Positions 277-64,000 of a DNA stretch of 64,000 nt are shown in pieces. Positions within the stretch are counted from its first letter, which is position 1, and each line of letters starts with the position of its first letter. The stretch comes from Sulfuritalea sp. (lineage in GTDB: Bacteria > Pseudomonadota > Gammaproteobacteria > Burkholderiales > Rhodocyclaceae). The DNA is taken from contig NZ_JAFLDR010000022.1 in NCBI RefSeq assembly GCF_017302275.1, positions 1 to 64,000 on the forward strand, read 5' to 3'. The translations under genes were made by a program, and so were the position numbers. The notes beneath the pieces were generated by a model. The model saw nothing but the letters and a program-made list of their open reading frames with translations, was not told the DNA's origin and did no database searches.

Positions 277-2034
277 ATGAAAACCATATCGACCGACGTC
301 GCCATCATAGGTGCCGGAGGTGCCGGTTTGCGCGCCGCGATCGCGCTGGCGGAAAGCGATCCAAAACTTCGAGTTGCGCTGATCTCGAAGGTCTACCCGA
401 TGCGCAGCCATACCTGCGCCGCCGAAGGCGGCGCCGCCGGGGTGATCAAACCCGATGACAGTTTCGACCTGCATTTCGACGATACGGTGGGCGGCGGCGA
501 CTGGCTTTCCGATCAGGATTGCGTCGAATACTTCATCCACGAGGCACCCAAGGAACTGCTGCAACTGGAGCACTGGGGCTGCCCCTGGAACCGCGATGCG
601 GACGGCTCGGTGGCGGTGCGGCCCTTCGGCGGAATGAAAAAGAAACGCACCTGGTTCGCCGCCGACAAGTCGGGATTCCACATCCTGCACACCCTGTTCC
701 AGACCTCGCTGCAGTTCCCCTCGATCACCCGCCACGACGAGTTCTACGCGCTCGACCTGCTGGTCGATGACGGCCGTTGCCAGGGCGTCACCGCGCTCGA
801 AATGCGTAGCGCCGAATTGTGGCAAATCCACGCCAGGGCGGTGATCATCGCCGGCGGTGGCGCCGGCCGCATGTTCCCCTTCTCCACCAATGGCGCGATC
901 AAGACCGGCGATGGCATGGCCATGGCCTACCGCGCCGGCGCGCCGCTGAAAGACATGGAGTTCGTCCAGTACCATCCGACCGGGCTACCCAACACCGGCA
1001 GCCTGCTGACCGAAGCCTGTCGCGGCGAAGGCGGCATCCTGGTGAACAAGCATGGCCGCCGCTACCTGCAGGATTACGGCATGGGCCCTGAAACCCCGGT
1101 CGGTCAGCCGCAGCTGAAGACCATGGAACTGGGGCCGCGCGACCGCGTCAGCCAGGCCTACTGGCACGAGCTGCAGAAGGGCAACACGGTGACGACCCAA
1201 TGGGGCGAATGCGTGCTGCTCGACATGCGCCACCTCGGCGAGAAGAAGATCAACGAGCGCCTGCCGCTGGTGCGCGAACTGGCCGAAAGCTACCTCGGCG
1301 TCGATATCGTCAAGGATGCGGTGCCGATCCGCCCCGTGGTGCACTACATGATGGGCGGCATCTCGACCGACACGAAAGCCGCCACGCCGCTGCCCGGTCT
1401 CTTCGCCGCCGGCGAGTGCGCCTGCGTCAGCCTCAACGGCGCCAATCGCCTCGGGTCGAACTCGCTGGTGGAACTGCTGGTGTTCGGCCGCCGTGCCGCG
1501 CTTTCCGCGATCGAGCACGTTCAGGGTGTGGCGGCACCGAATGCAGCCGCGCTGAATGCTCACGCACAACAGACGCAGTCGCGCATCGACGAACTCATGA
1601 CCCGCACCGACGGCAGCGAATCGATGTCCGGTCTGCGCAAGGAGATGCAGGACACCATGGAGAAGAACGTCGGCATCTACCGCAGCGAGGAAGGCCTGCA
1701 GGAAGGCGTGAGCAAGATCCATGAACTGCGTCAGCGCTACCGACGCGTCAAGCTCACGGACAAGAGCAGTGTCTTCAATACCGACCTGTTCCAGTTGCTT
1801 GAACTCGGTTCCATGCTCGACTGCGCCGAGGCCGTGACGGTCGGCGCGCTGGCGCGCAAGGAGTCACGCGGCGCCCACCAGCGCCTCGACTTCGTCGAAC
1901 GCGACGACCGGAAATTCCTCTGCCACACGATGGTCTATCACCAGGGGCTGGACCTTCCCCGTGTCGACTACCTCGACGTGGTGATCACCAAGTCGCCGCC
2001 CGGAGTGCGCGATTACTCGGGAGACCACAAATGA
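277..2034 (+). CDS. frdA: Fumarate reductase flavoprotein subunit FrdA
   Basis: This is the catalytic flavoprotein of quinol:fumarate reductase, which reduces fumarate to succinate on the cytoplasmic face of the membrane. The dinucleotide-binding motif GAGGAG is at residues 12-17. RSHT around His45 is the site of covalent FAD attachment in this family, and HPTGLP plus the TEACRGEGG segment form the dicarboxylate site. At 585 aa it has the usual length. ATG 277 is preferred over GTG 268 because AGGG lies 8 bp before it. The stop overlaps frdB by 4 bp. The two separate short membrane subunits that follow argue for FrdABCD of the E. coli kind rather than succinate dehydrogenase, though the enzyme could run both ways. 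Confidence 0.93.
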   Translation: MKTISTDVAIIGAGGAGLRAAIALAESDPKLRVALISKVYPMRSHTCAAEGGAAGVIKPDDSFDLHFDDTVGGGDWLSDQDCVEYFIHEAPKELLQLEHWGCPWNRDADGSVAVRPFGGMKKKRTWFAADKSGFHILHTLFQTSLQFPSITRHDEFYALDLLVDDGRCQGVTALEMRSAELWQIHARAVIIAGGGAGRMFPFSTNGAIKTGDGMAMAYRAGAPLKDMEFVQYHPTGLPNTGSLLTEACRGEGGILVNKHGRRYLQDYGMGPETPVGQPQLKTMELGPRDRVSQAYWHELQKGNTVTTQWGECVLLDMRHLGEKKINERLPLVRELAESYLGVDIVKDAVPIRPVVHYMMGGISTDTKAATPLPGLFAAGECACVSLNGANRLGSNSLVELLVFGRRAALSAIEHVQGVAAPNAAALNAHAQQTQSRIDELMTRTDGSESMSGLRKEMQDTMEKNVGIYRSEEGLQEGVSKIHELRQRYRRVKLTDKSSVFNTDLFQLLELGSMLDCAEAVTVGALARKESRGAHQRLDFVERDDRKFLCHTMVYHQGLDLPRVDYLDVVITKSPPGVRDYSGDHK

Positions 2035-53613: not shown

Positions 53614-53723
53614 AGCCTCGGCTGTGCCGGGGAAGCCGGTGCTGGAACAGCGCCGTTCCAGGAATGATCGCAACAAGCGGACTTCCTTGCCATGGCCGGA
53701 TCAACGCCGCGGATCAATGCCGC

Positions 53724-55061
53724 TCAAACGTCGGCCAGCAACATCGAAAAGGCGCTGCGCGCCTCGTTGGTGAACACGCCCTGGATGTTCGACAGTCGCC
53801 AGATCTGTCCGAGGGTCAGCCATACATGCGATTGCGTGAGGCCGGGGAATTCGCAGTCCGGGGGCAATTCGACGATCCGGTAACGGCAGACCGAACGGAA
53901 GAACCGGCCGCCCTCGTCGGATTGCATTGTCGCCATGCGCTCCTGCCCCCGCCTGATCAACTCGGCTATCACAAGCGCCGGCGGTTCGCCGCTGGCCAGA
54001 TCATCCGACTGCCAGCTGGGGCCGACTTGAACCCGCTCGCGAAATCCGGCCTCGATGCTGGCGCGCATCAGAAAGCGCAGCACCCCGTCACGCTGCTGGC
54101 ACAACTGGACGACCTCTTCTTCCCGGTCGCCAAGATAAAACGGCTGGTCCCAGAAGCCGACCTCGCGCGAGTTGGCCTCCACCGCGTAAGCACCTATCCG
54201 TGACCGGCCGTCGGCGCGACGAACAATCCCGTCCCCGGTTATTTCCCAGCTGGGCAGCGACTCCAGCTCGACGGTTTGGACATCCAGAACGATGCCCCGA
54301 CGCTCCCCGTCCAGCCATTCCAGCACATCGGTTTCATCGTCTTCGGCAGCCGCTTCGAAAGAACCGGGCAGGCCCGCGCGCCAGTCGCATCCACCACGCC
54401 AGCGAGCAAAGGGTGCCCCTTCGGCAAGCAGCTTCCAGTCGGAGCAGAACAATACCGACCGGGCATCGGTATTCACCGCGAAATCCATGGCAAGCATGGC
54501 GCGCAACTCCGCCGCAGCCACCCAGCGCCAATCAGCCGAACAGGGTGTCGGGCCGCCGTCGCCGGACAGCACGGTGACATTGCTGTTGTACTTGCCGAGA
54601 AAGCGATTGCCATGCTCCGACTGCAGGCTGTCACGGACGACAGTATCGCTCCGACCCGGCGCGATGAACCGGTCGATATACGGGGTTGCCGCACCGCCAT
54701 GCACCCGCGTGTAGTTGCTCAACGTGGCCTGCACGCTTGGCGCCAGTTGCACTTCACCGACGTTGCCCGGTTCTGCCTTGGCCTGCACCAGCCATTCCCA
54801 GCCGGCAGCGGTTGGGCGCACGATGAAACCCAGGATCCCGACCTCGGGCTGGTCGATGATCGGCTGGCAGATGTCATGAAAAACGCTAGCGCCAGCGGTG
54901 GTCCGAATGCCGACAACCGAGAAAAACCCCCCGGACACGTGCTCAAGACGACCGCAGCGGAACCTCCAGGATGTACTTTCACCCCAGGGAATCGGGCGCA
55001 GGGAAAGCCGGCAGGCAGCACGCCGGCCGGCCAGCCATTCAGCCAGATCGCCAACCATCAC
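53724..55061 (-). CDS. NDP-hexose 2,3-dehydratase family protein
   Basis: A 445-aa protein of the EvaA/TylX3/SpnO family, which removes water from dTDP-4-keto-6-deoxyglucose at C2-C3 on the way to 2,6-dideoxysugars. It shows the duplicated family pattern: LSLRPIPWGESTSW, GGFFSVVGIRT, QPIIDQPEVGILGFIVRP, and QAKAEPGNVGEVQLAPSVQATLSNYTRVHGG, with an equivalent but shorter second half. Usual partners (dTDP-glucose synthase and dehydratase, 3-ketoreductase) are missing here. It overlaps the upstream glycosyltransferase by 4 bp, suggesting that a deoxysugar is made and transferred. Confidence 0.8.
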   Translation of the reverse strand: MMVGDLAEWLAGRRAACRLSLRPIPWGESTSWRFRCGRLEHVSGGFFSVVGIRTTAGASVFHDICQPIIDQPEVGILGFIVRPTAAGWEWLVQAKAEPGNVGEVQLAPSVQATLSNYTRVHGGAATPYIDRFIAPGRSDTVVRDSLQSEHGNRFLGKYNSNVTVLSGDGGPTPCSADWRWVAAAELRAMLAMDFAVNTDARSVLFCSDWKLLAEGAPFARWRGGCDWRAGLPGSFEAAAEDDETDVLEWLDGERRGIVLDVQTVELESLPSWEITGDGIVRRADGRSRIGAYAVEANSREVGFWDQPFYLGDREEEVVQLCQQRDGVLRFLMRASIEAGFRERVQVGPSWQSDDLASGEPPALVIAELIRRGQERMATMQSDEGGRFFRSVCRYRIVELPPDCEFPGLTQSHVWLTLGQIWRLSNIQGVFTNEARSAFSMLLADV

Positions 55062-56131
55062 GGCGATTGAAGACTCTGGCGCGCAAACTGCAGCAGGCCC
55101 GCAAAATCGGGAGGCGGCGGCAGTTCCTCGCCCGTACGCAAACGCAGCGCGATGCGCATGGCACGTCCTTTCTCGAGGCCGGATTCGATGCAGAACTGCT
55201 CGAAGGAATCACGGCCATCCTTCAGGTATTCACGGGCGGCGGTTGCCGACAGCAGTTCTTCAGCCCGTCGCTCCTGGGCCTTGGTCAGATCGCCCATCGC
55301 GCTGAGCAACAGCCGTGAAAAGCCAAGACGCGGAAGCCGGGCAGCCAGATCCGATCCGATCTGCCGCAGGAGCGCGGCGCGAATCTCGCCCGCACCGACA
55401 TCGTGGATCAAACCATCGAGCAGTTGGTCCTCACCCCGATCCCAAGCGTAGGAACCGTGCGGACCGATCTTCTGGTTGTGCGTCAGAATGTGGAGCACGG
55501 TAATGTCCCCGGATTCGACCAAGCGCTCGCCTGCCCGCCATGCCCGCAACAACCAGTCTTCCATCGGCGTCCGGTGGATTGTGGCCGCGGCACGCCACGG
55601 CCCCACGCGACGCGCCAGATCGCGGGAGAACACCCAGGCGCTGCATGGCTCGAACATCTCGCAACCGCGGCTGAACACATCGCCGAGGCTGCGCCCGGGC
55701 GGCGTCATTTCGGAAAATACCGGCACCAGGCGTCCGTCGTTCAGTTGTCCGCTGAAGCGCGCAAAAGCGGCCCGACCGGCGAAGAACTCGCCACCACCCG
55801 CATCCAGAGACGCCATGGCCTGCTCCAGGTGGTCAGCCAGCAGCACGTCGTCGTGATTGAGAAGGGCAATCCAGGGACTCGCGGCCAGCGCCATGCCGAT
55901 CGAATTGGGAATCGACTGTTCGCCGCAGCGCGCCGGCAGGTTCACGTAGTCGATGCGACTGTCCCCGATGGCGGCGACGACCTCGGCGGTGCGCGCATCA
56001 CAGGCATCGCCGATGACCAGAAGGCGCCAGTCGGCGAGCGTCTGCCGCAACACCGAACGAATCGCCAACCGCAGGCTTGCAGGCCGGTTGTAGGTCGCCA
56101 GTACGATGGTGATCAGGGGCACATGGGTCAT
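55058..56131 (-). CDS. Family 2 glycosyltransferase
   Basis: A GT-A fold transferase (357 aa from ATG 56131; ATG 56149 would add 6 residues). ITIVLATYNRPASLRLAIRSVLRQT starts the nucleotide-binding domain, with the DxD-like metal site in ALLNHDDVLLADHL and the acceptor-side PMEDWLLRAWRAGE. The C-terminal 110 residues are helical and unassigned. It is translationally coupled to the 2,3-dehydratase gene, so it may transfer that sugar to a surface polymer or lipid; the acceptor is unknown. Confidence 0.8.
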   Translation of the reverse strand: MTHVPLITIVLATYNRPASLRLAIRSVLRQTLADWRLLVIGDACDARTAEVVAAIGDSRIDYVNLPARCGEQSIPNSIGMALAASPWIALLNHDDVLLADHLEQAMASLDAGGGEFFAGRAAFARFSGQLNDGRLVPVFSEMTPPGRSLGDVFSRGCEMFEPCSAWVFSRDLARRVGPWRAAATIHRTPMEDWLLRAWRAGERLVESGDITVLHILTHNQKIGPHGSYAWDRGEDQLLDGLIHDVGAGEIRAALLRQIGSDLAARLPRLGFSRLLLSAMGDLTKAQERRAEELLSATAAREYLKDGRDSFEQFCIESGLEKGRAMRIALRLRTGEELPPPPDFAGLLQFARQSLQSP

Positions 56132-56149
56132 CGGTATCAGGCCCTCCAT

Positions 56150-56438
56150 TCAGGGCGCCAACGGCTTCGCTGCCGCCGGAAACCTCCAGCCGCGATGGGT
56201 CATTCTACGTCGCAGGATCGATCCGGGATGACAAGCAATCGACGCGGGTGGCCGGAGCCAGTCGCAATGGTCGGGATCACGATGATGGTGACGGCAGGCA
56301 AGGGCAACGTCGACGCCATCCCCTGATCCAACCAGCGAGGACATTGATCGCCGGATACACGACTGATCGGCGCTGGTGTCGCCCGCTGCCGCGGTAACCA
56401 CGGTCTCGCTGACCCGGGAATCGACGGTCAGCGCCTGC
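56150..56438. other. Gene-free stretch before the dnaJ remnant
   Basis: I recognise no gene, RNA or strong hairpin here. A short in-frame piece near 56397-56414 (T-T-V-S-L-T) resembles the TPVSLT segment of DnaJ and may be a further trace of the decayed dnaJ copy. The promoter for the minus-strand glycosyltransferase should lie near 56150-56220 but is not clear. Confidence 0.35.
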
Positions 56439-56507
56439 CAGGCGGGCCGCCGCAGCCCATGAGCACGGAGCTGGCTGGCCAGGATCAGGGATTTCTTTGG
56501 CAGTTGA
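56439..56507 (+). pseudogene. Remnant of a second dnaJ 3' end
   Basis: The 40 bp at 56468-56507 match the last 40 bp of dnaJ (53574-53613) at 35 positions and translate to SWLARIRDFFGS-stop against [12 protein letters not shown]-stop. Upstream, codons R-S-P-(stop)-A-R align with H-S-P-R-A-Q, with an in-frame TGA breaking the frame. The rest of the gene is gone. Confidence 0.72.
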
Positions 56508-56531
56508 GGCGGCCCGGGTCAATACGTACCA

Positions 56532-56578
56532 AAAGTCGGCGTCCCACAGGGACTTCCTTCGGTCGCTGGCGGGACGGC
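56532..56578 (+). repeat. Dispersed repeat, long form (47 bp)
   Basis: Starts AAAGTCGGCG, contains GGGACTTCCTTCGG, and ends CTGGCGGGACGGC. It matches the 18555-18601 copy at 40 of 47 positions. The likely -35 of the toxin-antitoxin operon falls in its 3' half. Confidence 0.6.
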
Positions 56579-56632: not shown

Positions 56633-56860
56633 ATGGGCATGCCCGTCCGCATTGACGACACACTGTACGAACAGGCCCGTGCCCAGGCGCAGGCCGAACG
56701 CCGCACCATCGCCGGCCAGATCGAGTTCTGGGCCATGGTGGGCAAGGCGGCGCTGGACAATCCCGACCTGCCCATCGATTTCGTCCGCGATCTGCTGATC
56801 GCCCGCGCCGAAGGCCCGGCACTGGCGACGCCATTCGTCGCCGAAGGCAAGCGCGACTGA
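56633..56860 (+). CDS. ParD-like antitoxin
   Basis: A 75-aa protein opening MGMPVRIDDTLYEQARAQAQAERRTIAGQIEFWAMVG, a ribbon-helix-helix domain of the ParD-like antitoxin family. The C-terminal third should bind the toxin. GAGGTGAAG precedes the ATG. It is 2 bp from the toxin gene and behind a palindromic operator. Confidence 0.82.
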   Translation: MGMPVRIDDTLYEQARAQAQAERRTIAGQIEFWAMVGKAALDNPDLPIDFVRDLLIARAEGPALATPFVAEGKRD

Positions 56861-56862
56861 TC

Positions 56863-57141
56863 GTGCCCACCGTTCAGGTACTACAGTCCGCCGCATTTCG
56901 CCGCGCCTACAAGCGCCTGCACGCAAACCAGAAGGCGGACGTGGACGCCGCCGTGCGGACCATCGTCGACGATCCGACCGTGGGCGAAGCCAAGAAAGGC
57001 GACCTAGCCGGCGTCTTCGTCTACAAGTTCAAGTGCGTAGGCCAGCTCGCCCTGCTGGCCTACGAATACGATCCCGCCACCCGACTCCTGTTGCTGCTCG
57101 GCTCGCACGAGAACTTCTATCGCGAGTTGAAGCGGTTCTAA
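56863..57141 (+). CDS. RelE/ParE-family toxin
   Basis: A 92-aa toxin with GTG start. VLQSAAFRRAYKRLHANQKADVDAAVRTI is the helical hairpin, and AKKGDLAGVFVYKFKCVGQLALLAYEYD and LLLLGSHENFYRELKR form the beta sheet and C-terminal strand. The ending GSHENFYRELKR is usual in this branch. It could be a ribosome-dependent nuclease or a gyrase poison; sequence does not decide. It ends 70 bp before the tracrRNA terminator. Confidence 0.83.
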   Translation: MPTVQVLQSAAFRRAYKRLHANQKADVDAAVRTIVDDPTVGEAKKGDLAGVFVYKFKCVGQLALLAYEYDPATRLLLLLGSHENFYRELKRF

Positions 57142-57211
57142 GCCTCACGCACAGGCGCCGGCATGCCGAAAGCAAAACCGGCTTGCGGCACGTAAATCCG
57201 AGTCGCATAAT

Positions 57212-57310
57212 GGAAAGGCCCGACGAAGCCTTTCGGTTCCGCCGGGCCTGGATACAGAATCTTTCGATTCTTTATTGTAGCAACGGCTCTCACCCCGGAT
57301 AGCCACAACG
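57212..57310 (-). ncRNA. tracrRNA of the type II-C locus
   Basis: The minus strand at 57309-57274 is an anti-repeat: 16 bp (57288-57303) are perfectly complementary to the CRISPR repeat, and the outer arms pair with a G-U wobble each, leaving a 6-nt internal loop. It continues with GCTACAATAAAG, a GAATC-GAAA-GATTC hairpin (57257-57270), and a GC-rich terminator stem (57217-57248) with TTTCC. Layout and the GAG.GCCGTTGCTACAATAA stretch resemble the Neisseria meningitidis tracrRNA. Predicted length is about 99 nt. It diverges from cas9. Confidence 0.88.
57217..57248 (-). terminator. Terminator of the tracrRNA
   Basis: On the minus strand GGCCCGGCG pairs with CGTCGGGCC (one G-U pair), followed by TTTCC. 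It also forms the last structural hairpin of the RNA. Confidence 0.75.
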
Positions 57311-57316
57311 GAGCCG

Positions 57317-57345
57317 ATTATGCGGGAGGAAACCATGACAGGCAA
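57317..57345 (-). promoter_or_regulatory. Promoter of the tracrRNA, inside the cas9 start region
   Basis: On the minus strand TTGCCT (57345-57340), a 17-bp spacer and CATAAT (57322-57317) make a sigma-70 promoter. The start would fall about 57310, one base before the anti-repeat. It overlaps the cas9 RBS and start codon. Confidence 0.7.
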
Positions 57346-60300
57346 TACCCTTGGTCCGTTGACCTTCGGCTTCGACATAGGCATTGCCTCGGTCGGTTGG
57401 TGCGTGCTTGGCGAAAACCGCATTGTCGATATGGGCGCACGGTGTTTTGATTCCGGCGAAGACAGCGATGGAAAGCCGCACAACCAGACGCGGCGGGGCG
57501 CGCGAGTAGCCCGCAATCGACTGCACATGCGCAGATGGCGCTTGCGCCAGCTACTCCGCCTGTTCTGCGATACCGGGATCATTGATCGTCCCGATCCGAA
57601 GCTGCTCATGACACCGCCCGGCGAGGATGACCCATGGCAGTTGCGTGCCAAGGGACTGAAAGGCCCTCTCGAACCCATCGAATGGGCCTGCGTGCTGTAC
57701 CACTTGGTCAAACACCGGGGCTTCGAGTTCTTCCGCAAAAGCGAACTGATGTCATCGCAAACACCCGATGCACCGCTGCCAGACACGAGCGAAGAAAAAC
57801 AGGGCAAAGTAGAAACTCCCAACGAAGAAGCCGCCGCAGCCAAAGAAAAAGAGAAGCTCAACAACGCACTTAAGAAAACCAGCGATCTCCTCGAAAAATA
57901 CCGCAAGCTTCTTGAAGAGTATCACCAAGTACCATTGACTGTAGGCAGTTTGCTCGTTTGGCTGGTGAAAGAGGACTACGCACGCGGTGAACCGCAACCT
58001 GACACAAGCGACCGCATAACGTCCATTCGCAACAAGAGCGGCAGCTACCGGCACGCATTTTTCCGTGCTGTACTGCGTCGCGAATTGCATGAACTGTTTG
58101 CCGCACAAACCTTACACGGCAATCCCTACACCACCTTGGACTTACCTGCCGACGGCGAATACGCACGGCACATGCTCGCCCAAGACAACTCAAAACTAAC
58201 GCCAGAGAAAGCCATTCCAATTGGAAGTGAATCGCGCCCGGTAGGGCAAACGTTCCAGCAAGCGGTTTTTGACCTGTTCGATCTTCAGCATCCTCCGCTC
58301 TACGGAGAACAAATTCGCGAGATGGTCGGCAAATGCGAGTTGATAGAAGGGCAACCGCGCGCATCCAAGAACGCTTTCTCATCGGAACGCGCCACATGGC
58401 TTGAAACGCTCAACAAGCTCCGTGTTCGCCGCGACGGAAAAGAAACTCCGCTTTCAACCGAAGAACGCGCCGCGCTCATCAACCTGCCCTACGAGCCCCA
58501 CAAAGTAACGCTCAAACTCGTGCGCGAAACCTTGATGGCCCGGACGGGCTTCCCCGCCTCGTGGCAGGAAGCCAGCTTCAATGTCGCGTCTTACCAAGCC
58601 AAACCGGCGAATGATGGTGCGTGGATATTCATTGCCTCCCGCGACCAGGAATTCCTTAGCCTTGCCAAGTGGGCGAGCACCAAGGAGCGGAAAGACAAGC
58701 TGAAGGAGGCCAAGAAAATGCTGATGGGCGGCATCATCACGTTCAGAGAACTGCGCAAGCAACTTGGACTCGCGGATTCCGACCGCTTTGTCAGCCGGAT
58801 CAAGGACACCACCATCATCCCGCACGACAAAGAGGCATACGAACACCTCCAATTCCCATCCGATGGCAACGGACTATTTGCGCCCGGTCACTTCTTCCGC
58901 TGCATTTCCAACAATGGCAAACCCAAAGTTTTTCCGAAGATCGCATTGAAACTCGCTGCCGACCTTCGTTCACAGTCCGCCGCAACACTGGCCGACTGGC
59001 GCAAGGCCATTGCGACCATGCCAAGCATATCTGGCACATGGCAATTCGAGCATTCCATTTCAACAGAAATGGCCATCGAGCCAAAGGATGAGGCGCATAC
59101 CCAAGTCCCCCTGAAGTTCGAGGATGCGCAAGCCGTGGAAGCCGACCACAAACTCGTTGAACTGAAAGGCTGGCACGCCTTGCGGCTGGCTTTGGCCGAG
59201 CGTTGTCCCGATAAATGGGCGCAGCTGCAGGTTGCCTACCAACGCCCGACCAGCGACGAAGGGCAACGCGCCGCGCATGAAATCGACGACATCGCCACCA
59301 TACTGACCGAGGCTCAGACCGACCACGAAATCGAAATGAAACTGCGAGAGCGCGGCTGCACGGACGCAGAAGAAATCGATGCCCTTAAATCTGTTGGCTT
59401 CAGTAAATTTCGCAATCTGAGCCTTGCCGCGCTTCACAGGATTCTTCCCCATCTTGAGGACGGGCATGTCTACAGCAAAGCCTGCGAACTGGCTGATCTA
59501 TCGCACTCCGAGAAAAAGGCGCAGGTTCGCGGCAGCAGACTGCCTCCGTTGAAGACCTGCGTCTACCAGCGCTACCGGCATGGAATGCTCACAGGACACA
59601 AGGAAAATCGCTACAAGGAACTGCTCAACCCTGTTGTCGCACGCTCCTTCAATCAGGCGCGTCTTGTCTTCAATGATCTCGTCACCAAGCACGGCTCCCC
59701 CACTTACGTCCATGTCGAAACTGCCCGCGATCTGGCGCGTTCCAAAAAGATGCGCGACAAGATCAGCAGGGAACAGGACACAAACCGCAAACGCATCGAG
59801 AGCATCCGCAACGACTTGAAGAACAAGCTGGGGCGCGAGCCAAGCGGCGAACAGCTACTCAAGAGGCGTCTCTATCTTGAGCAGAACGGACAATGCCTCT
59901 ACACAGGAAGATCGCTTGAGCCATACATCGACGCGATGCTCACAAGCGACGAGAACGTCGTTGAAATCGACCATATCTGGCCGCGCTCGAAAACCTTCGA
60001 CAACAGCCTCGACAATCGCGTGCTGGTGATTGCCGGCGCCAACCAGAACAAGCGAAACCAAATTCCCTACGAGTTCTTTAACGGCGCTGGCGGCGACCCG
60101 CGCTGGCGGGAATTCGAAATACGGGTTCTAGCCTGCAAAGGCATCAGCGCCGAGAAGCAGCGCCGCCTGCTGTCCAAGAGCCTGGAAGATGCCGACGAAT
60201 TCCTCGCCAGAAACCTTGTCGACACCCGCTACGCCACGCGCCTGTTCTCCGCCATGTTGCGCGAACGAGTCATGTTCGCGGGAGGCGCGACACCTGAAGA

Positions 60301-61798
60301 ACTGGAAGCCATCTCGCCGGACGACGATGGCAAAACCCGCTGGAATCGCTATCAGCGCGCCCGCGTTCGCAGTCCTCAAGGTCGGCTGGTGGACTTCCTG
60401 CGCGGCAAATGGGGATTTGCGCATCTCAAGGACAGGGAGAAGAGCGACCTGCACCATGCGCTGGACGCCTGCATCATCGCAGCTTGCTCGCCGAAGACCA
60501 TCCAGCAGGTCAACAACTATTTTGCGGAAGAAGAGCAGGAGCCGGGAAAACACAGCTTCAAACGCAATTCCGACGGTACTTACACGCATCGCGCCACGAG
60601 AAAAACTCTCAGCAAGGAAGAAGCCGTAGAACGCGGCCTCTATCTGCCCGCGCCGTGGAAGCCCCGTGAGGTGATGGATGCGCTAAACAAGGTTTTCGTC
60701 TCCCGCCGCCCCAAGCGCAAATCGGCGACCGAAATTCACGATGCTAACCCGAAAGGCATGCGCTATCTGCCCGTCCCGCTTGTTCATCTGACCGAGGAGA
60801 TGTTGTCTGCCGAGAAACTGCGCGAAATCACCGGGTGCCGCCGCGAGAACTACGAAACGCTGCTCACGGCATTGCAGGAGGCAAACGGCGACGCTCAAGT
60901 CGCGTTTGCCGACGGTTACGACGTCGAAGGAAAACACGGCAAGCTCAAACGCATCTACAGCATCGCCATGCCGCTATGGAGCCTGCCCGACGCTTATCGC
61001 AAGCAACGAGACAAGGAACTGACGAAAGAGAACGCCAGAAGACGCAAGGACGCGGAAAGCCGCAAGGAAGAAGCTGCGAAGCTGTACCAAAGCCTGTCGA
61101 AGACCGCGCGCAAGACCGTCCCCCTGACCAATCTCACGCAAAAAATGCTTACGGAAGCAGAACTGGGCAGCACTTTTTACCAGCGCAACAGGGAACTGAT
61201 CGATGTGCTGAAAGCCCATCTGGGCGACAAGAAAGCCAAGGATGCCTTCGCCCAACCTTTCCAGCCACCGTCTGGCAAGAAAGGCAAGAAGCGGCCCGTC
61301 ATTCGCTCCATCCGCCTTCCCGATACACATGGCAGCGGGATGCTGGTCCGCGGCGGCATTACCGGGCTGGGGGAAAGCATCTCCACTGAAGTTTGGATGA
61401 CGGAAAGCGGCTTTTTCTTCCGGCCTCGATACCTGGTCGCCGAGGAAACCACTTTCGGATTGGAAGAGCCGCCTATAGGTGCAAGGCACCTGTTCAATTT
61501 GCGGATTGACGAGCCGATTGAGGTCGTTCTGACGGATGGCGAGATCATCCCCGGTAACGGATTCCCCGGATATTTCGTGATGTACGAGGGCGATAAGCGC
61601 ATCAAGATACGAACGCATGACCGCCCGGGTAAGGGCAAGAGGAAAAAGTCAGAAGAGGAAACAGGGAACGAGGACGAGACGGACAATTCGCTCTGGCGGA
61701 TTAGCATCAGCGGCGTCAAGGAACTGAAGAAATATCGCGTAGACGCACTCGGCAACTTCAAATTGGTCGCGAACGCAAATTGGTCTGGCGTAGCGTAA
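57335..61798 (+). CDS. cas9: Cas9 endonuclease, type II-C, unusually large
   Basis: RNA-guided double-strand DNase (1487 aa). RuvC-I is FGFDIGIASVGW (Asp14), the arginine-rich bridge helix spans 53-76, RuvC-II is YVHVETARDL (Glu795), HNH is VEIDHIWPRSKTFDNSLDNR (His880), and RuvC-III is LHHALDACIIA (His1040, Asp1044). All catalytic residues are present. Well-known type II-C enzymes have about 950-1100 aa. The extra length lies in the recognition lobe, including a charged coiled-coil-like insert at about 150-197, and in a C-terminal part of about 430 residues. ATG 57335 follows GGAGG by 5 bp; ATG 57320 would add 5 residues. GC content is below that of flanking host genes. Confidence 0.96.
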   Translation: MTGNTLGPLTFGFDIGIASVGWCVLGENRIVDMGARCFDSGEDSDGKPHNQTRRGARVARNRLHMRRWRLRQLLRLFCDTGIIDRPDPKLLMTPPGEDDPWQLRAKGLKGPLEPIEWACVLYHLVKHRGFEFFRKSELMSSQTPDAPLPDTSEEKQGKVETPNEEAAAAKEKEKLNNALKKTSDLLEKYRKLLEEYHQVPLTVGSLLVWLVKEDYARGEPQPDTSDRITSIRNKSGSYRHAFFRAVLRRELHELFAAQTLHGNPYTTLDLPADGEYARHMLAQDNSKLTPEKAIPIGSESRPVGQTFQQAVFDLFDLQHPPLYGEQIREMVGKCELIEGQPRASKNAFSSERATWLETLNKLRVRRDGKETPLSTEERAALINLPYEPHKVTLKLVRETLMARTGFPASWQEASFNVASYQAKPANDGAWIFIASRDQEFLSLAKWASTKERKDKLKEAKKMLMGGIITFRELRKQLGLADSDRFVSRIKDTTIIPHDKEAYEHLQFPSDGNGLFAPGHFFRCISNNGKPKVFPKIALKLAADLRSQSAATLADWRKAIATMPSISGTWQFEHSISTEMAIEPKDEAHTQVPLKFEDAQAVEADHKLVELKGWHALRLALAERCPDKWAQLQVAYQRPTSDEGQRAAHEIDDIATILTEAQTDHEIEMKLRERGCTDAEEIDALKSVGFSKFRNLSLAALHRILPHLEDGHVYSKACELADLSHSEKKAQVRGSRLPPLKTCVYQRYRHGMLTGHKENRYKELLNPVVARSFNQARLVFNDLVTKHGSPTYVHVETARDLARSKKMRDKISREQDTNRKRIESIRNDLKNKLGREPSGEQLLKRRLYLEQNGQCLYTGRSLEPYIDAMLTSDENVVEIDHIWPRSKTFDNSLDNRVLVIAGANQNKRNQIPYEFFNGAGGDPRWREFEIRVLACKGISAEKQRRLLSKSLEDADEFLARNLVDTRYATRLFSAMLRERVMFAGGATPEELEAISPDDDGKTRWNRYQRARVRSPQGRLVDFLRGKWGFAHLKDREKSDLHHALDACIIAACSPKTIQQVNNYFAEEEQEPGKHSFKRNSDGTYTHRATRKTLSKEEAVERGLYLPAPWKPREVMDALNKVFVSRRPKRKSATEIHDANPKGMRYLPVPLVHLTEEMLSAEKLREITGCRRENYETLLTALQEANGDAQVAFADGYDVEGKHGKLKRIYSIAMPLWSLPDAYRKQRDKELTKENARRRKDAESRKEEAAKLYQSLSKTARKTVPLTNLTQKMLTEAELGSTFYQRNRELIDVLKAHLGDKKAKDAFAQPFQPPSGKKGKKRPVIRSIRLPDTHGSGMLVRGGITGLGESISTEVWMTESGFFFRPRYLVAEETTFGLEEPPIGARHLFNLRIDEPIEVVLTDGEIIPGNGFPGYFVMYEGDKRIKIRTHDRPGKGKRKKSEEETGNEDETDNSLWRISISGVKELKKYRVDALGNFKLVANANWSGVA

Positions 61799-62682
61799 TG
61801 ATCTCGAGCCCCGCCAAACTGCGGCGGGAGCATTTCTCACTGGCCATCGAACAGGAGCAGACAGCGTTCGTGCCCTTCGAGGACATCGCCGTAATCATCC
61901 TCAACCACCGTGAGATTACCCTCACCCATCCGGTGCTTTCAGCCTGCGCCGAGTATGGTATCGGCCTCTATGCCACCGGCAGCAACCATCAGCCGGCCGG
62001 CGTGTTCCTGCCCTTCCTGCCGCACTCGCGCACCACGCGCATGATGCGTCTGCAACTCAAGATCGCCAAACCAGCCGCCAAGCAGGTTTGGGCCGGCATC
62101 GTCCGCCGCAAGATCGAAAATCAGGCCGCGTGCCTCAGGCTGGACGGCAAGAAGGGCACGGATCGGCTCGCTTCCTACGCGCGCCGGGTTCGCTCCGGTG
62201 ATCCCGATAACCTGGAAGCCCAGGCCGCCGCCTTCTATTTCGCGCAACTTTTCGGCCAGGATTTTCACCGCGCCGAAGATCGCTGGACCAATGCCGCCCT
62301 GGATTACGGCTATGCGGTGCTGCGCGGCGCGATCGCACGCGGCCTTGTGGCGCATGGCCTGCATCCCACGGTAGGCCTGTTCCATGACAGCGAACAGAAT
62401 GCCTTCAATCTTGCGGACGATTTGATCGAGCCCTTTCGCCCTCTGGTTGATCTGCATGTCACCAAGCATGCGGCCTTGACGGAAGGCGATCTGATCCCGG
62501 CCGACAAGCAGGCGCTGGTGGCGCTGCTCAATGTCGATGTCGCGATGCCGCAGGGGTGCATGTCGGTATTGTCCGCGATCGAGTATGCGGTGGAAAGCCT
62601 GGTGCGCGCGTACGAAGGTGACACGAAGGAACTCGACCTGCCCGGCCTGATCGGCTTGCAGCCGCACCGGCTGGAGCATTGA
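61798..62682 (+). CDS. cas1: CRISPR integrase Cas1
   Basis: The spacer integrase (294 aa), type II form. A beta-rich N-terminal domain is followed by the helical catalytic domain with the metal ligands in NLEAQAAAFYF (Glu), GLFHDSEQNAFNLADDLIE (His and acidic residues). The ATG shares a TAATG overlap with the cas9 stop. With Cas2 it forms the integration complex. Confidence 0.95.
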   Translation: MISSPAKLRREHFSLAIEQEQTAFVPFEDIAVIILNHREITLTHPVLSACAEYGIGLYATGSNHQPAGVFLPFLPHSRTTRMMRLQLKIAKPAAKQVWAGIVRRKIENQAACLRLDGKKGTDRLASYARRVRSGDPDNLEAQAAAFYFAQLFGQDFHRAEDRWTNAALDYGYAVLRGAIARGLVAHGLHPTVGLFHDSEQNAFNLADDLIEPFRPLVDLHVTKHAALTEGDLIPADKQALVALLNVDVAMPQGCMSVLSAIEYAVESLVRAYEGDTKELDLPGLIGLQPHRLEH

Positions 62683-62683
62683 T

Positions 62684-63016
62684 GTGGGCATCGAGACGAG
62701 GCGATACATGCGCTTGCTCGTCTTCTTCGACCTGCCGATGGTGACCAAGGCCGAGAAACGCGCCTATGTCCAATTCCGCCGCTTCCTTCTCAACGACGGC
62801 TACGACATGATCCAGTGGTCGGTCTATGGCCGCATCCTGAACGGGCGTGATGCTGAGACAAAGCACCTTGCGCGGCTTGTGGAAAGCCTTCCGCCGGAGG
62901 GCTCCATCCGCTGCATGACCGTGACCGAGAAGCAATATGCCGGCATGCGCCTGCTGGTCGGCCTGCCGCTATTTCAGGAAAAAAAGGTCGCGGCGTCCCA
63001 AATGCTGCTCTTCTGA
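62684..63016 (+). CDS. cas2: CRISPR adaptation protein Cas2
   Basis: A 110-aa ferredoxin-like dimeric subunit of the Cas1-Cas2 integrase. RRYMRLLVFFDLPMVTKAEKRAY is the first strand and loop, typical of type II Cas2. GTG 62684, with GGAG 7 bp before it, keeps the RRYMR lead usual in relatives; ATG 62708, also with GAGG before it, would give 102 aa. It is the last cas gene; no csn2 or cas4 follows. Confidence 0.92.
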   Translation: MGIETRRYMRLLVFFDLPMVTKAEKRAYVQFRRFLLNDGYDMIQWSVYGRILNGRDAETKHLARLVESLPPEGSIRCMTVTEKQYAGMRLLVGLPLFQEKKVAASQMLLF

Positions 63017-63079: not shown

Positions 63080-64000
63080 GATTGTAGCTATCCGGGGTGA
63101 GAGAGGGAGCTACAACAAGCTTGGCGACTACAAACTGACCATTGCCGATTGTAGCTATCCGGGGTGAGAGAGGGAGCTACAACTGTGGTAACGCACGGAA
63201 TGCAAGGCGGATGGATTGTAGCTATCCGGGGTGAGAGAGGGAGCTACAACGAACTCTCCATTCGAGCGGGACTGCCTGCCGATTGTAGCTATCCGGGGTG
63301 AGAGAGGGAGCTACAACGGGTGTCGATGCGCTCCGGCACGTTGCAGTGATTGTAGCTATCCGGGGTGAGAGAGGGAGCTACAACTGTAATGCCGCTTTGT
63401 GCTGGAGGTGATGAGATTGTAGCTATCCGGGGTGAGAGAGGGAGCTACAACAGAACTTCACCCCACCGCCTTTAACTTTGGGATTGTAGCTATCCGGGGT
63501 GAGAGAGGGAGCTACAACCGTCACGCTGACCGAAAGCACCGGCGCCGAGATTGTAGCTATCCGGGGTGAGAGAGGGAGCTACAACGGTGCAGCGGAAGCC
63601 GACGTCGCCGTAGCGGATTGTAGCTATCCGGGGTGAGAGAGGGAGCTACAACCGCCGTCGACGCGCGCCTCGATGTCGCGGTGATTGTAGCTATCCGGGG
63701 TGAGAGAGGGAGCTACAACAGTGTGCCGTGGGTGGTGTGGCCATCGTCTGATTGTAGCTATCCGGGGTGAGAGAGGGAGCTACAACAAAAGCATGACCAC
63801 CACCATCACCCACCTGGATTGTAGCTATCCGGGGTGAGAGAGGGAGCTACAACTCTTGGTGTGCTCGGCTCGCTGCGGCGCGTGATTGTAGCTATCCGGG
63901 GTGAGAGAGGGAGCTACAACGCAACGGTCGGCAGGAGATCATCAATTGGCGATTGTAGCTATCCGGGGTGAGAGAGGGAGCTACAACCGATCTAGTGCAA
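63080..64000 (-). CRISPR. Type II-C CRISPR array, 14 repeats, truncated by window end
   Basis: Fourteen identical 37-nt repeats start at 63080 and recur every 67 bp (last at 63951), leaving 30-nt spacers: 13 complete and one cut off at the window end. The crRNA strand is minus: there the repeat begins GTTGTAGCTCCC and ends GCTACAATC, closely like the 36-nt Neisseria meningitidis repeat. The extra terminal C (plus-strand G) is present in all 14 copies. Even the cas2-proximal repeat is intact. The leader should lie beyond the right edge. Confidence 0.97.

What the first reader, a model, noticed from the sequence alone, without database searches (positions are those of the whole stretch)
57335..61798. 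Type II-C Cas9 of 1487 residues
Gene content (cas9-cas1-cas2 only), repeat and tracrRNA are Neisseria-like II-C, yet the protein is about 400 residues longer than familiar II-C Cas9s and longer than SpCas9. The HNH-to-RuvC-III spacing is ordinary, so the extra mass is in the REC lobe (Glu795 against 504 in NmeCas9) and after RuvC-III (about 440 against 312). A charged insert near residues 150-197 and an enlarged C-terminal domain may give a different PAM or target-binding behaviour.
Basis: partly seen in the sequence, partly recalled or inferred. Interest (0 to 1): 0.72.

Follow-up and report, generated by a model that had tools for sequence, protein, structure and literature searches.

The report
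Enlarged Cas9 swapped into CRISPR locus
This is a real, unusually long relative of the Neisseria-type Cas9 gene cutter; part of its extra length looks like a copy of its own parts, and it appears to have replaced a shorter Cas9 in an otherwise unchanged bacterial CRISPR locus.

Summary
The ORF is real: 57335-61798, 1487 aa, nuclease motifs intact, between a Neisseria-like tracrRNA and cas1-cas2-array. It is type II-C by operon, Cas1 and Cas9 signature. Three full-length relatives (65-73% identical, 1488-1498 aa) exist. Against ordinary relatives the extra residues are about +48, +30 and +173 in REC and +109 after RuvC-III. The last reflects a partial tandem duplication of the WED-like segment, seen in 4 of 4 long forms and none of the other 84 entries scanned; a repeated motif in REC is less certain. 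Main new point: seven congeners keep the same locus (G990: Cas1 95.6%, Cas2 99%) but carry ordinary Cas9s (G990 24-34% by piece); DNA similarity stops at 57429-57504 and resumes at 61780-61781 in all seven. Cas1 and Cas9 trees conflict (p-AU 0.001). So cas9 alone was exchanged in situ, bringing another PAM-interacting loop. In-situ cas9 shuffling is already described for Flavobacteriales II-C (PMC12669027, passages). PAM undetermined; weak hint of N4C. New variant of a known kind.

The parts
57335..61798 (+). cas9, 1487 aa, enlarged type II-C effector
57212..57310 (-). tracrRNA (anti-repeat with a CCGU bulge, short stem, terminator-like hairpin), read on the minus strand
   Evidence: pairs with the repeat; the anti-repeat core was found in 10 of 11 relatives inspected; no Rfam match
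57431..61780 (+). exchanged segment: no DNA match over 60 bits to the same locus in seven congeners beyond 57429-57504, whereas both sides are about 77-92% identical
   Evidence: the exact 5' border may lie anywhere from the tracrRNA to about codon 57
57749..57919 (+). charged, poorly conserved insert in REC (about residues 139-195)
58505..59134 (+). REC expansion, residues 391-600 (+173 between LPY and the GWHALR motif); repeated ordinary REC motif at 380-422 and 466-488, possibly a third copy at 550-570
   Evidence: profile-profile and predicted secondary structure; plain HMMER did not support it for the window; block shared with L081
59894..60070 (+). HNH nuclease core (residues 854-912)
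60680..60943 (+). WED-like segment, copy 1 (residues 1116-1203)
61103..61318 (+). WED-like segment, copy 2 (residues 1257-1328)
61349..61795 (+). PAM-interacting region with GYFVMYEGD loop
61798..62682 (+). cas1 (type II)
62684..63016 (+). cas2
63080..64000 (-). CRISPR array (crRNA sense on minus strand); continues to 64389 of the contig, 20 repeats, 19 spacers

Best explanation
A working type II-C Cas9 of an enlarged lineage has replaced, in situ, the ordinary Cas9 (about 1116-1194 aa in congeners) of this locus. Shown: DNA similarity to the same locus in seven congeners breaks off early in cas9 (by codon 57 at the latest) and returns at its last codons; tracrRNA, repeats, cas1 and cas2 stayed those of the host lineage; the extra length sits in REC and between RuvC-III and the PAM-interacting domain; the latter arose by partial tandem duplication of the WED-like segment. 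Inferred: the enzyme uses the resident tracrRNA:crRNA, as the Cas9 it replaced did; it cuts double-stranded DNA with HNH and RuvC; the duplicated WED-like segment and the larger REC add contacts to the guide or the PAM-proximal duplex; and the exchange changed PAM specificity, and perhaps anti-CRISPR sensitivity, while the guides were kept.
For: Congener G990: Cas1 95.6%, Cas2 99.1%, but Cas9 31%, 34% and 24% in its three aligned pieces. DNA similarity ends at 57429-57504 and resumes at 61780 or 61781 in 7 of 7 congeners with the cas1-cas2 module; dnaJ lies upstream in four of them. tracrRNA side (57201-57334): 120/126 to G990 and 110-119 of 120-128 to five other congeners, against 103/129 to the long-form L119; next 120 nt inside cas9: 66-75 of 113-119 against 87/120 and 92/120 to L119 and L080. 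Cas9 tree: long forms one clade (SH-aLRT 100), L081 their sister (99); Cas1 tree: window sister to G990 (100/98), long forms as one clade rejected (p-AU 0.001). Duplication: copy 1 v copy 2 P=1.1e-5 over 105 columns, 28% identity, HHalign probability 61%; ordinary-segment HMM hits twice in 4 of 4 long forms, best of 1500 shuffles 5.4 bits. Nuclease residues present. dN/dS 0.07-0.32 in the 6 of 24 comparisons that could be computed. PI loops differ.
Against: No expression or activity data. The structure models are weak (pTM 0.32 and 0.31), so positions of the duplicated parts in the complex are not known. REC: the three units match one another only at P 0.01-0.024; a plain HMMER search with the ordinary REC profile gave the window 3.3 and 1.0 bits at the two places, below the best shuffle (8.0), although L081 gave 14.6 and 8.4; only profile-profile scores clear their controls, and the third copy has no independent support. 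The 5' border is not sharp: over codons 1-32 only G990 (84/96) is clearly closer to the window than the long forms are (69/92 to 75/96); the other five congeners measured give 69/96 to 75/96. Only one of the eight genomes of the genus with the module carries the long form, so the exchange rests on one assembly; misassembly is unlikely, not excluded. No donor was found. Both trees carry long-branch warnings.
Confidence: 0.75

Rival explanations
1. An ordinary long II-C Cas9 inherited vertically with its locus; no exchange.
For: Operon, repeat and tracrRNA are normal II-C; long Cas9s are known in nature (PMC7606464, passages).
Against: Flanks, Cas1 and Cas2 are those of the genus, the cas9 body is not; Cas1 and Cas9 trees conflict.
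Confidence: 0.1
2. Assembly chimera: a long cas9 from another organism stitched into this contig at conserved cas9 ends.
For: Single genome with the long form at this place; draft of 88 contigs.
Against: The genome holds one Cas9 over the family cut-off; the junction sequences are only about 72-89% alike between window and congeners, poor ground for stitching; long-form loci of the same layout exist elsewhere (L119, L080). No reads were available.
Confidence: 0.06
3. The added C-terminal segment is an inserted foreign domain, not a copy of the neighbouring Cas9 segment.
For: Copy 1 scores only 14.6-19.6 bits with the ordinary-segment HMM; HHalign probability of copy against copy is 61%.
Against: Same order of motifs, collinear over 105 columns at P=1.1e-5, profile-profile score 52.9 against about 12 for stretches that touch neither copy, roughly similar predicted secondary structure.
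Confidence: 0.1
4. The enlarged Cas9 is decaying or has lost cleavage and acts otherwise, for example as a binder only.
For: Long, poorly conserved charged stretches.
Against: Open frame; catalytic residues present; HNH/RuvC part 78-83% identical to the other three long forms; 20 identical repeats.
Confidence: 0.05

Closest known systems
Nme1Cas9 (type II-C; PDB 6jdv, 8ja0)
   Same: Best sequence and Foldseek match; same domain order; nuclease motifs align. The tracrRNA bulge resembles the recalled Nme tracrRNA.
   Different: About 400 residues longer. The REC block 391-600, the second WED-like copy and the GYFVMYEGD loop have no counterpart in the aligned Nme1Cas9 stretches; its H1024, T1027, N1029 loop (named in PMC9433092; its letters recalled) is not found here.
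Ordinary II-C Cas9s of the same genus (1116-1194 aa in six congeners) and relatives such as Dechloromonas agitata (L083)
   Same: The congeners share the locus, tracrRNA, repeat type, cas1 and cas2; the PI loop of the window resembles that of L082-L087, L089 and L091.
   Different: Congener Cas9s are about 24-35% identical over most aligned pieces (up to 50% in a first-137-residue piece); no REC expansion; single WED-like segment.
Enlarged Cas9s L079 (Burkholderiales MAG), L080 (Betaproteobacteria MAG), L119 (G1104, same family as the window's genome)
   Same: 65-73% identical, 1488-1498 aa, same expansions and duplication: one family.
   Different: Other cas1 backgrounds (73-81% to the window's); no characterisation found.
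In-situ cas9 shuffling in subtype II-C of Flavobacteriales (PMC12669027; passages, method note and Extended Data Fig. 9 legend seen)
   Same: Closely related cas1 beside distantly related cas9; this case meets that paper's criterion (Cas1 in a 90% cluster, Cas9 in different 50% clusters).
   Different: Other order of bacteria; here the borders are mapped and the incoming Cas9 is a structurally enlarged variant.

Membership tests
CRISPR-Cas type II-C | Operon of three cas genes only (definition seen in PMC3936727) | tested here: met
   cas9, cas1, cas2, then array; ParDE-like pair upstream
CRISPR-Cas type II-C | Cas1 of type II, grouping with II-C relatives | tested here: met
   TIGR03639 266 bits over cut-off 120; Cas1 tree
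CRISPR-Cas type II-C | Cas9 groups with II-C Cas9s, apart from II-A and II-B | tested here: met
   Separated from one II-A row (L107) and one II-B-like row (L121, below the II-B family cut-off) with SH-aLRT 97; order among II-C clusters unresolved; quick method with long-branch warnings
CRISPR-Cas type II-C | tracrRNA with anti-repeat to the CRISPR repeat | tested here: met
Active Cas9 | RuvC and HNH catalytic residues | tested here: met
   D14, E795, H880, N903, H1040/H1041, D1044 present; which of them are catalytic is recalled from Nme1Cas9
Active Cas9 | RNA-guided DNA cleavage | not testable with these tools
   needs protein and guide
Type II-D (Cas9d) | Cas9d signature and cas4 in the locus | tested here: not met
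   NF049971 136 bits against cut-off 375; no cas4 among the genes scanned
In-situ cas9 shuffling (PMC12669027) | Cas1 at least 90% identical with Cas9 under 50% | tested here: met
   G990: Cas1 95.6%, Cas9 24-34% by piece
In-situ cas9 shuffling (PMC12669027) | Same chromosomal place | tested here: met
   dnaJ, ParDE region, tracrRNA, cas1, cas2 in the same order and spacing in G990, G1071, G1133; in G1132 dnaJ lies about 4 kb further upstream without the ParDE match; not seen in the other three of seven, where contigs or fetched stretches do not show it

The most novel reading that the evidence does not exclude
Whole-body cas9 exchange lets a bacterium keep its guide RNAs, adaptation genes and stored spacers while switching the effector to one with a different PAM and different surfaces. 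The enlarged Cas9, built by copying its own REC and WED-like segments, would be a mobile effector adapted to work with the resident Neisseria-type guide RNA in several cas1 backgrounds.
Probability: 0.35. Interest if true: 0.7.

Novelty: new variant of a known kind. Interest (0 to 1): 0.5.

Why it matters
Cas9 and its guide RNAs were found exchangeable only among closely related systems (PMC3936727, abstract and passages). Here a Cas9 that is mostly 24-34% identical to the one in its nearest congener sits beside the same kind of tracrRNA, repeats, cas1 and cas2. The locus and its congeners form a ready-made pair for testing how far a Cas9 can diverge and still use one guide RNA, and whether such swaps change PAM or escape anti-CRISPRs. 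The duplicated WED-like segment is also a lead to how Cas9s grow.

Tried and rejected
PAM by spacer matching. The array L003:7081-8391 was compared with 50,697 phage and 72,556 plasmid records; PAM-proximal 20-28 nt of six of the 19 window spacers were sought in viral contigs (hits for two of six); the arrays of L080 and L119 were compared with phages (nothing useful). Spacer 19 resembles ssb genes of phages and plasmids (best E-values 0.1 and 0.008), and spacer 8 a coding stretch repeated in viral contigs; spacer 16 matched only over its 20 PAM-proximal bases (6-7 mismatches in the other ten) and was not used. Closest sites are followed by AAACCCAT (1 mismatch, L149), AAATCAAG (2, L094) and AAGTCGTG (3, L095), all with C at position 5; but other sites with 2-4 mismatches have A or G there (L142, L144, L146, L150, L092, L093), and these are conserved coding sequences, so flanks are not free to vary. 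In a set of Nme1Cas9 orthologues, D at the H1024 position went with C at PAM position 5 (PMC9433092, passages); the window has E near there. N4C is a hint only.

Spacers shared with eleven related loci: none found; one of these loci (L136) yielded no spacers and L138 one. Rfam: no match for the tracrRNA region. Foldseek on both half models gives Nme1Cas9 first but TM-scores of about 0.2, so nothing follows about the added parts. The PI region alone finds no convincing solved structure. A pattern scan of viral contigs found no relative of this Cas9. Papers: the listings of nine searches showed no title on this Cas9 lineage or on a duplicated WED segment; the lists were capped, many entries off topic, and subscription papers are not held. 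A look for Nme1Cas9 domain borders in PMC9953297 gave none. One search failed (file path) and was repeated. One search stopped with an error before the column-permuted control of the C-terminal segment; its sliding-window control and the REC permutations had finished. The plain HMMER test of the REC repeat did not clear shuffles for the window.

The names WED, REC and PI for segments of the window protein are transferred from recalled Nme1Cas9 anatomy; the alignment of 1234-1357 to Nme1Cas9 833-956 is (8.5 bits for that piece).

Full report
What is there. The window carries a complete type II-C locus: tracrRNA on the minus strand (57310-57212), cas9 (57335-61798), cas1 (61798-62682), cas2 (62684-63016) and an array that continues past the window to contig position 64389, with 20 identical 37-nt repeats and 19 spacers of 30 nt. 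Cas9 has 1487 residues, matches TIGR01865 with 575 bits and Nme1Cas9 best among solved structures, and keeps the nuclease residues. The genome holds one Cas9 over the family cut-off.

Where the extra length lies. Distances between conserved motifs were compared with 15 ordinary relatives (n per segment 6 to 15, as motifs were not found in every row). Differences to the median: +48 (KHRGF to RN[KQ]), +30 (to MxGxC), +173 (LPY to the GWHALR motif, n=7), +8 (n=6), -2, +23 (DTRY to HHA), -20 (HHA to FVSR), +109 (FVSR to VRGG, n=14), +6 and +16 (n=8 each); the remaining segments do not differ.

Relatives. A scan of genome contigs with a two-row alignment gave 13 loci from 80 pattern matches; two encode full-length homologues (L079, 66%, 1488 aa; L080, 65%, 1498 aa), one (L081, cut by the contig end, 36%) shares the REC block but has a single WED-like segment, and ten are ordinary or partial. 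Among 199 genomes of the window's family, 37 matched and two, the window's own and G1104 (71-73%; 1495 aa in L119), show the long form over its full length; partial matches on short contigs could hide more. Among 369 genomes of the class, 200 of the order and 398 of the phylum (overlapping draws) only the window's own genome had a full-length match.

Internal duplication. An HMM of the ordinary segment after RuvC-III (108 positions, built from up to 27 relatives) hits twice in the window (1116-1203, 16.6 bits; 1257-1328, 25.3 bits) and in L079 and L080, once above zero in L081; the best of 1500 shuffled sequences scored 5.4. Two hits over 10 bits occur in 4 of 4 long forms and in none of 84 other entries; the 90 entries scanned include two further copies of the window protein and some duplicates and fragments. 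The two copies align to each other over 105 columns with P=1.1e-5, 28% identity and HHalign probability 61%. Sliding windows over the whole protein score 81 and 53 at the two places and about 12 where neither is touched. Copy 1 keeps the beginning of the ordinary segment (FVSRxPKRK..H), copy 2 its end, as expected of a partial tandem duplication. In REC, profile-profile comparison puts the ordinary motif at 380-422 (35.5) and 466-488 (34.8) as well as its end at about 605-622; unrelated windows reach 17 and 300 column permutations 19.2. Against this, the units match one another only at P 0.01-0.024, and plain HMMER gave the window 3.3 and 1.0 bits there, below the best shuffle of 8.0, though L081 gave 14.6 and 8.4. 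A duplication in REC is thus likely but not secure; a third copy is only suggested by the predicted secondary structure. Since L081 has the REC block but one WED-like segment, the REC growth probably came first (inference).

Exchange of cas9. Of 31 genomes of the genus, 8 including the window's have the cas1-cas2 module as a long match; three more have matches of 28-38 nt only. The other seven (L122, L123, L134-L138) carry ordinary Cas9s; in one (L138) cas9 and cas1 are each split between two frames. In all seven, DNA similarity to the window (matches over 60 bits) ends between 57429 and 57504 and returns at 61780 or 61781. In G990, G1071 and G1133 dnaJ, the ParDE region and the tracrRNA follow in the same order; in G1132 the end of dnaJ lies about 4 kb upstream of the tracrRNA; the other three do not show dnaJ in the stretch held. 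To G990 the tracrRNA side is 120/126 identical, codons 1-32 are 84/96 and the next 120 nt 71/119; to the long-form L119 the values are 103/129, 74/96 and 87/120. The other five congeners measured are close on the tracrRNA side (110-119 of 120-128) but over codons 1-32 (69/96 to 75/96) no closer than the long forms, so the 5' border is not sharp (L138 was not measured). Cas1 is 95.6% and Cas2 99.1% identical to G990, Cas9 31%, 34% and 24% in three pieces. In the Cas9 tree the four long forms are one clade (SH-aLRT 100) with L081 as sister (99); the six congeners' Cas9s lie in another group (quick method, long-branch warning for L081; L138 left out because it is split). In the Cas1 tree the window is sister to G990 (100/98), L119 and L080 are each other's sisters (100/100), and one clade of long forms is rejected (p-AU 0.001; L079's Cas1 is partial, 234 residues, on a long branch). 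Within the genus, seven ordinary against one long makes the long form the newcomer (inference); the donor is unknown.

What changes with it. The congeners' Cas9s have loops reading CHSGT, CHRGTGN or CDRST, which I take as Nme-type; the window and its long relatives have a one-residue-shorter loop (MYEGD or GYEGD), like L082-L087, L089 and L091, which were themselves retrieved partly through the pattern GYFVMYE. In Nme1Cas9 orthologues the residue at position 1024 went with the PAM letter at position 5 (PMC9433092, passages). A PAM change is therefore likely, but the PAM is not known; spacer matches give only a hint of C at position 5, with contrary cases.

Known or new. Natural Cas9s range from about 1000 to 1600 residues (PMC7606464, passages), so length alone is not remarkable. 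In-situ shuffling of cas9 beside conserved cas1 is described for II-C of Flavobacteriales, with a numeric criterion that this case meets (PMC12669027, passages and legend). Cas9 and guide RNAs were found exchangeable only between close relatives (PMC3936727, passages), which makes this natural exchange worth testing. I file it as a new variant of a known kind: type II-C Cas9, enlarged in part by internal duplication, placed here by in-situ exchange.

Limits. Structure models have mean pLDDT 60.1 and 63.5 and pTM 0.32 and 0.31. dN/dS could be computed for 6 of 24 comparisons only (0.07-0.32). No activity, expression or read data exist here.

Noticed in passing
window 53614-56558: About 2.9 kb with two minus-strand ORFs (445 and 363 aa, the latter glycosyltransferase-like by eye) lies between dnaJ and the ParDE-like pair; in G990, G1071 and G1133 only about 16-24 nt separate these.
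   Followed up: partly
window 56633-57141: ParD-like/ParE-like toxin-antitoxin pair directly upstream of the tracrRNA; the region is conserved at this place in G990, G1071 and G1133.
   Followed up: no
L003 array, spacer 19: Spacer resembles conserved ssb coding sequence of Pseudomonas phages and of plasmids of Allochromatium and Azonexus.
   Followed up: partly
L003 array, spacer 8: Spacer resembles a coding stretch (reading DVGFRCTK-like) that recurs three or four times in single viral contigs (L144, L148, L149, L151), perhaps a repeated or diversified protein end.
   Followed up: partly
L138 (G1133): Congener whose ordinary cas9 and cas1 are each split between two frames.
   Followed up: no
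L096 (Acidovorax temperans plasmid pEP1): Plasmid-borne type II locus with a similar repeat, a short cas1 and transposase genes between cas1 and cas9.
   Followed up: no
G947:C1:510545-510682: Only about the first 47 codons of a cas9 match, at 76%, in a one-contig genome of the family: a possible remnant.
   Followed up: no
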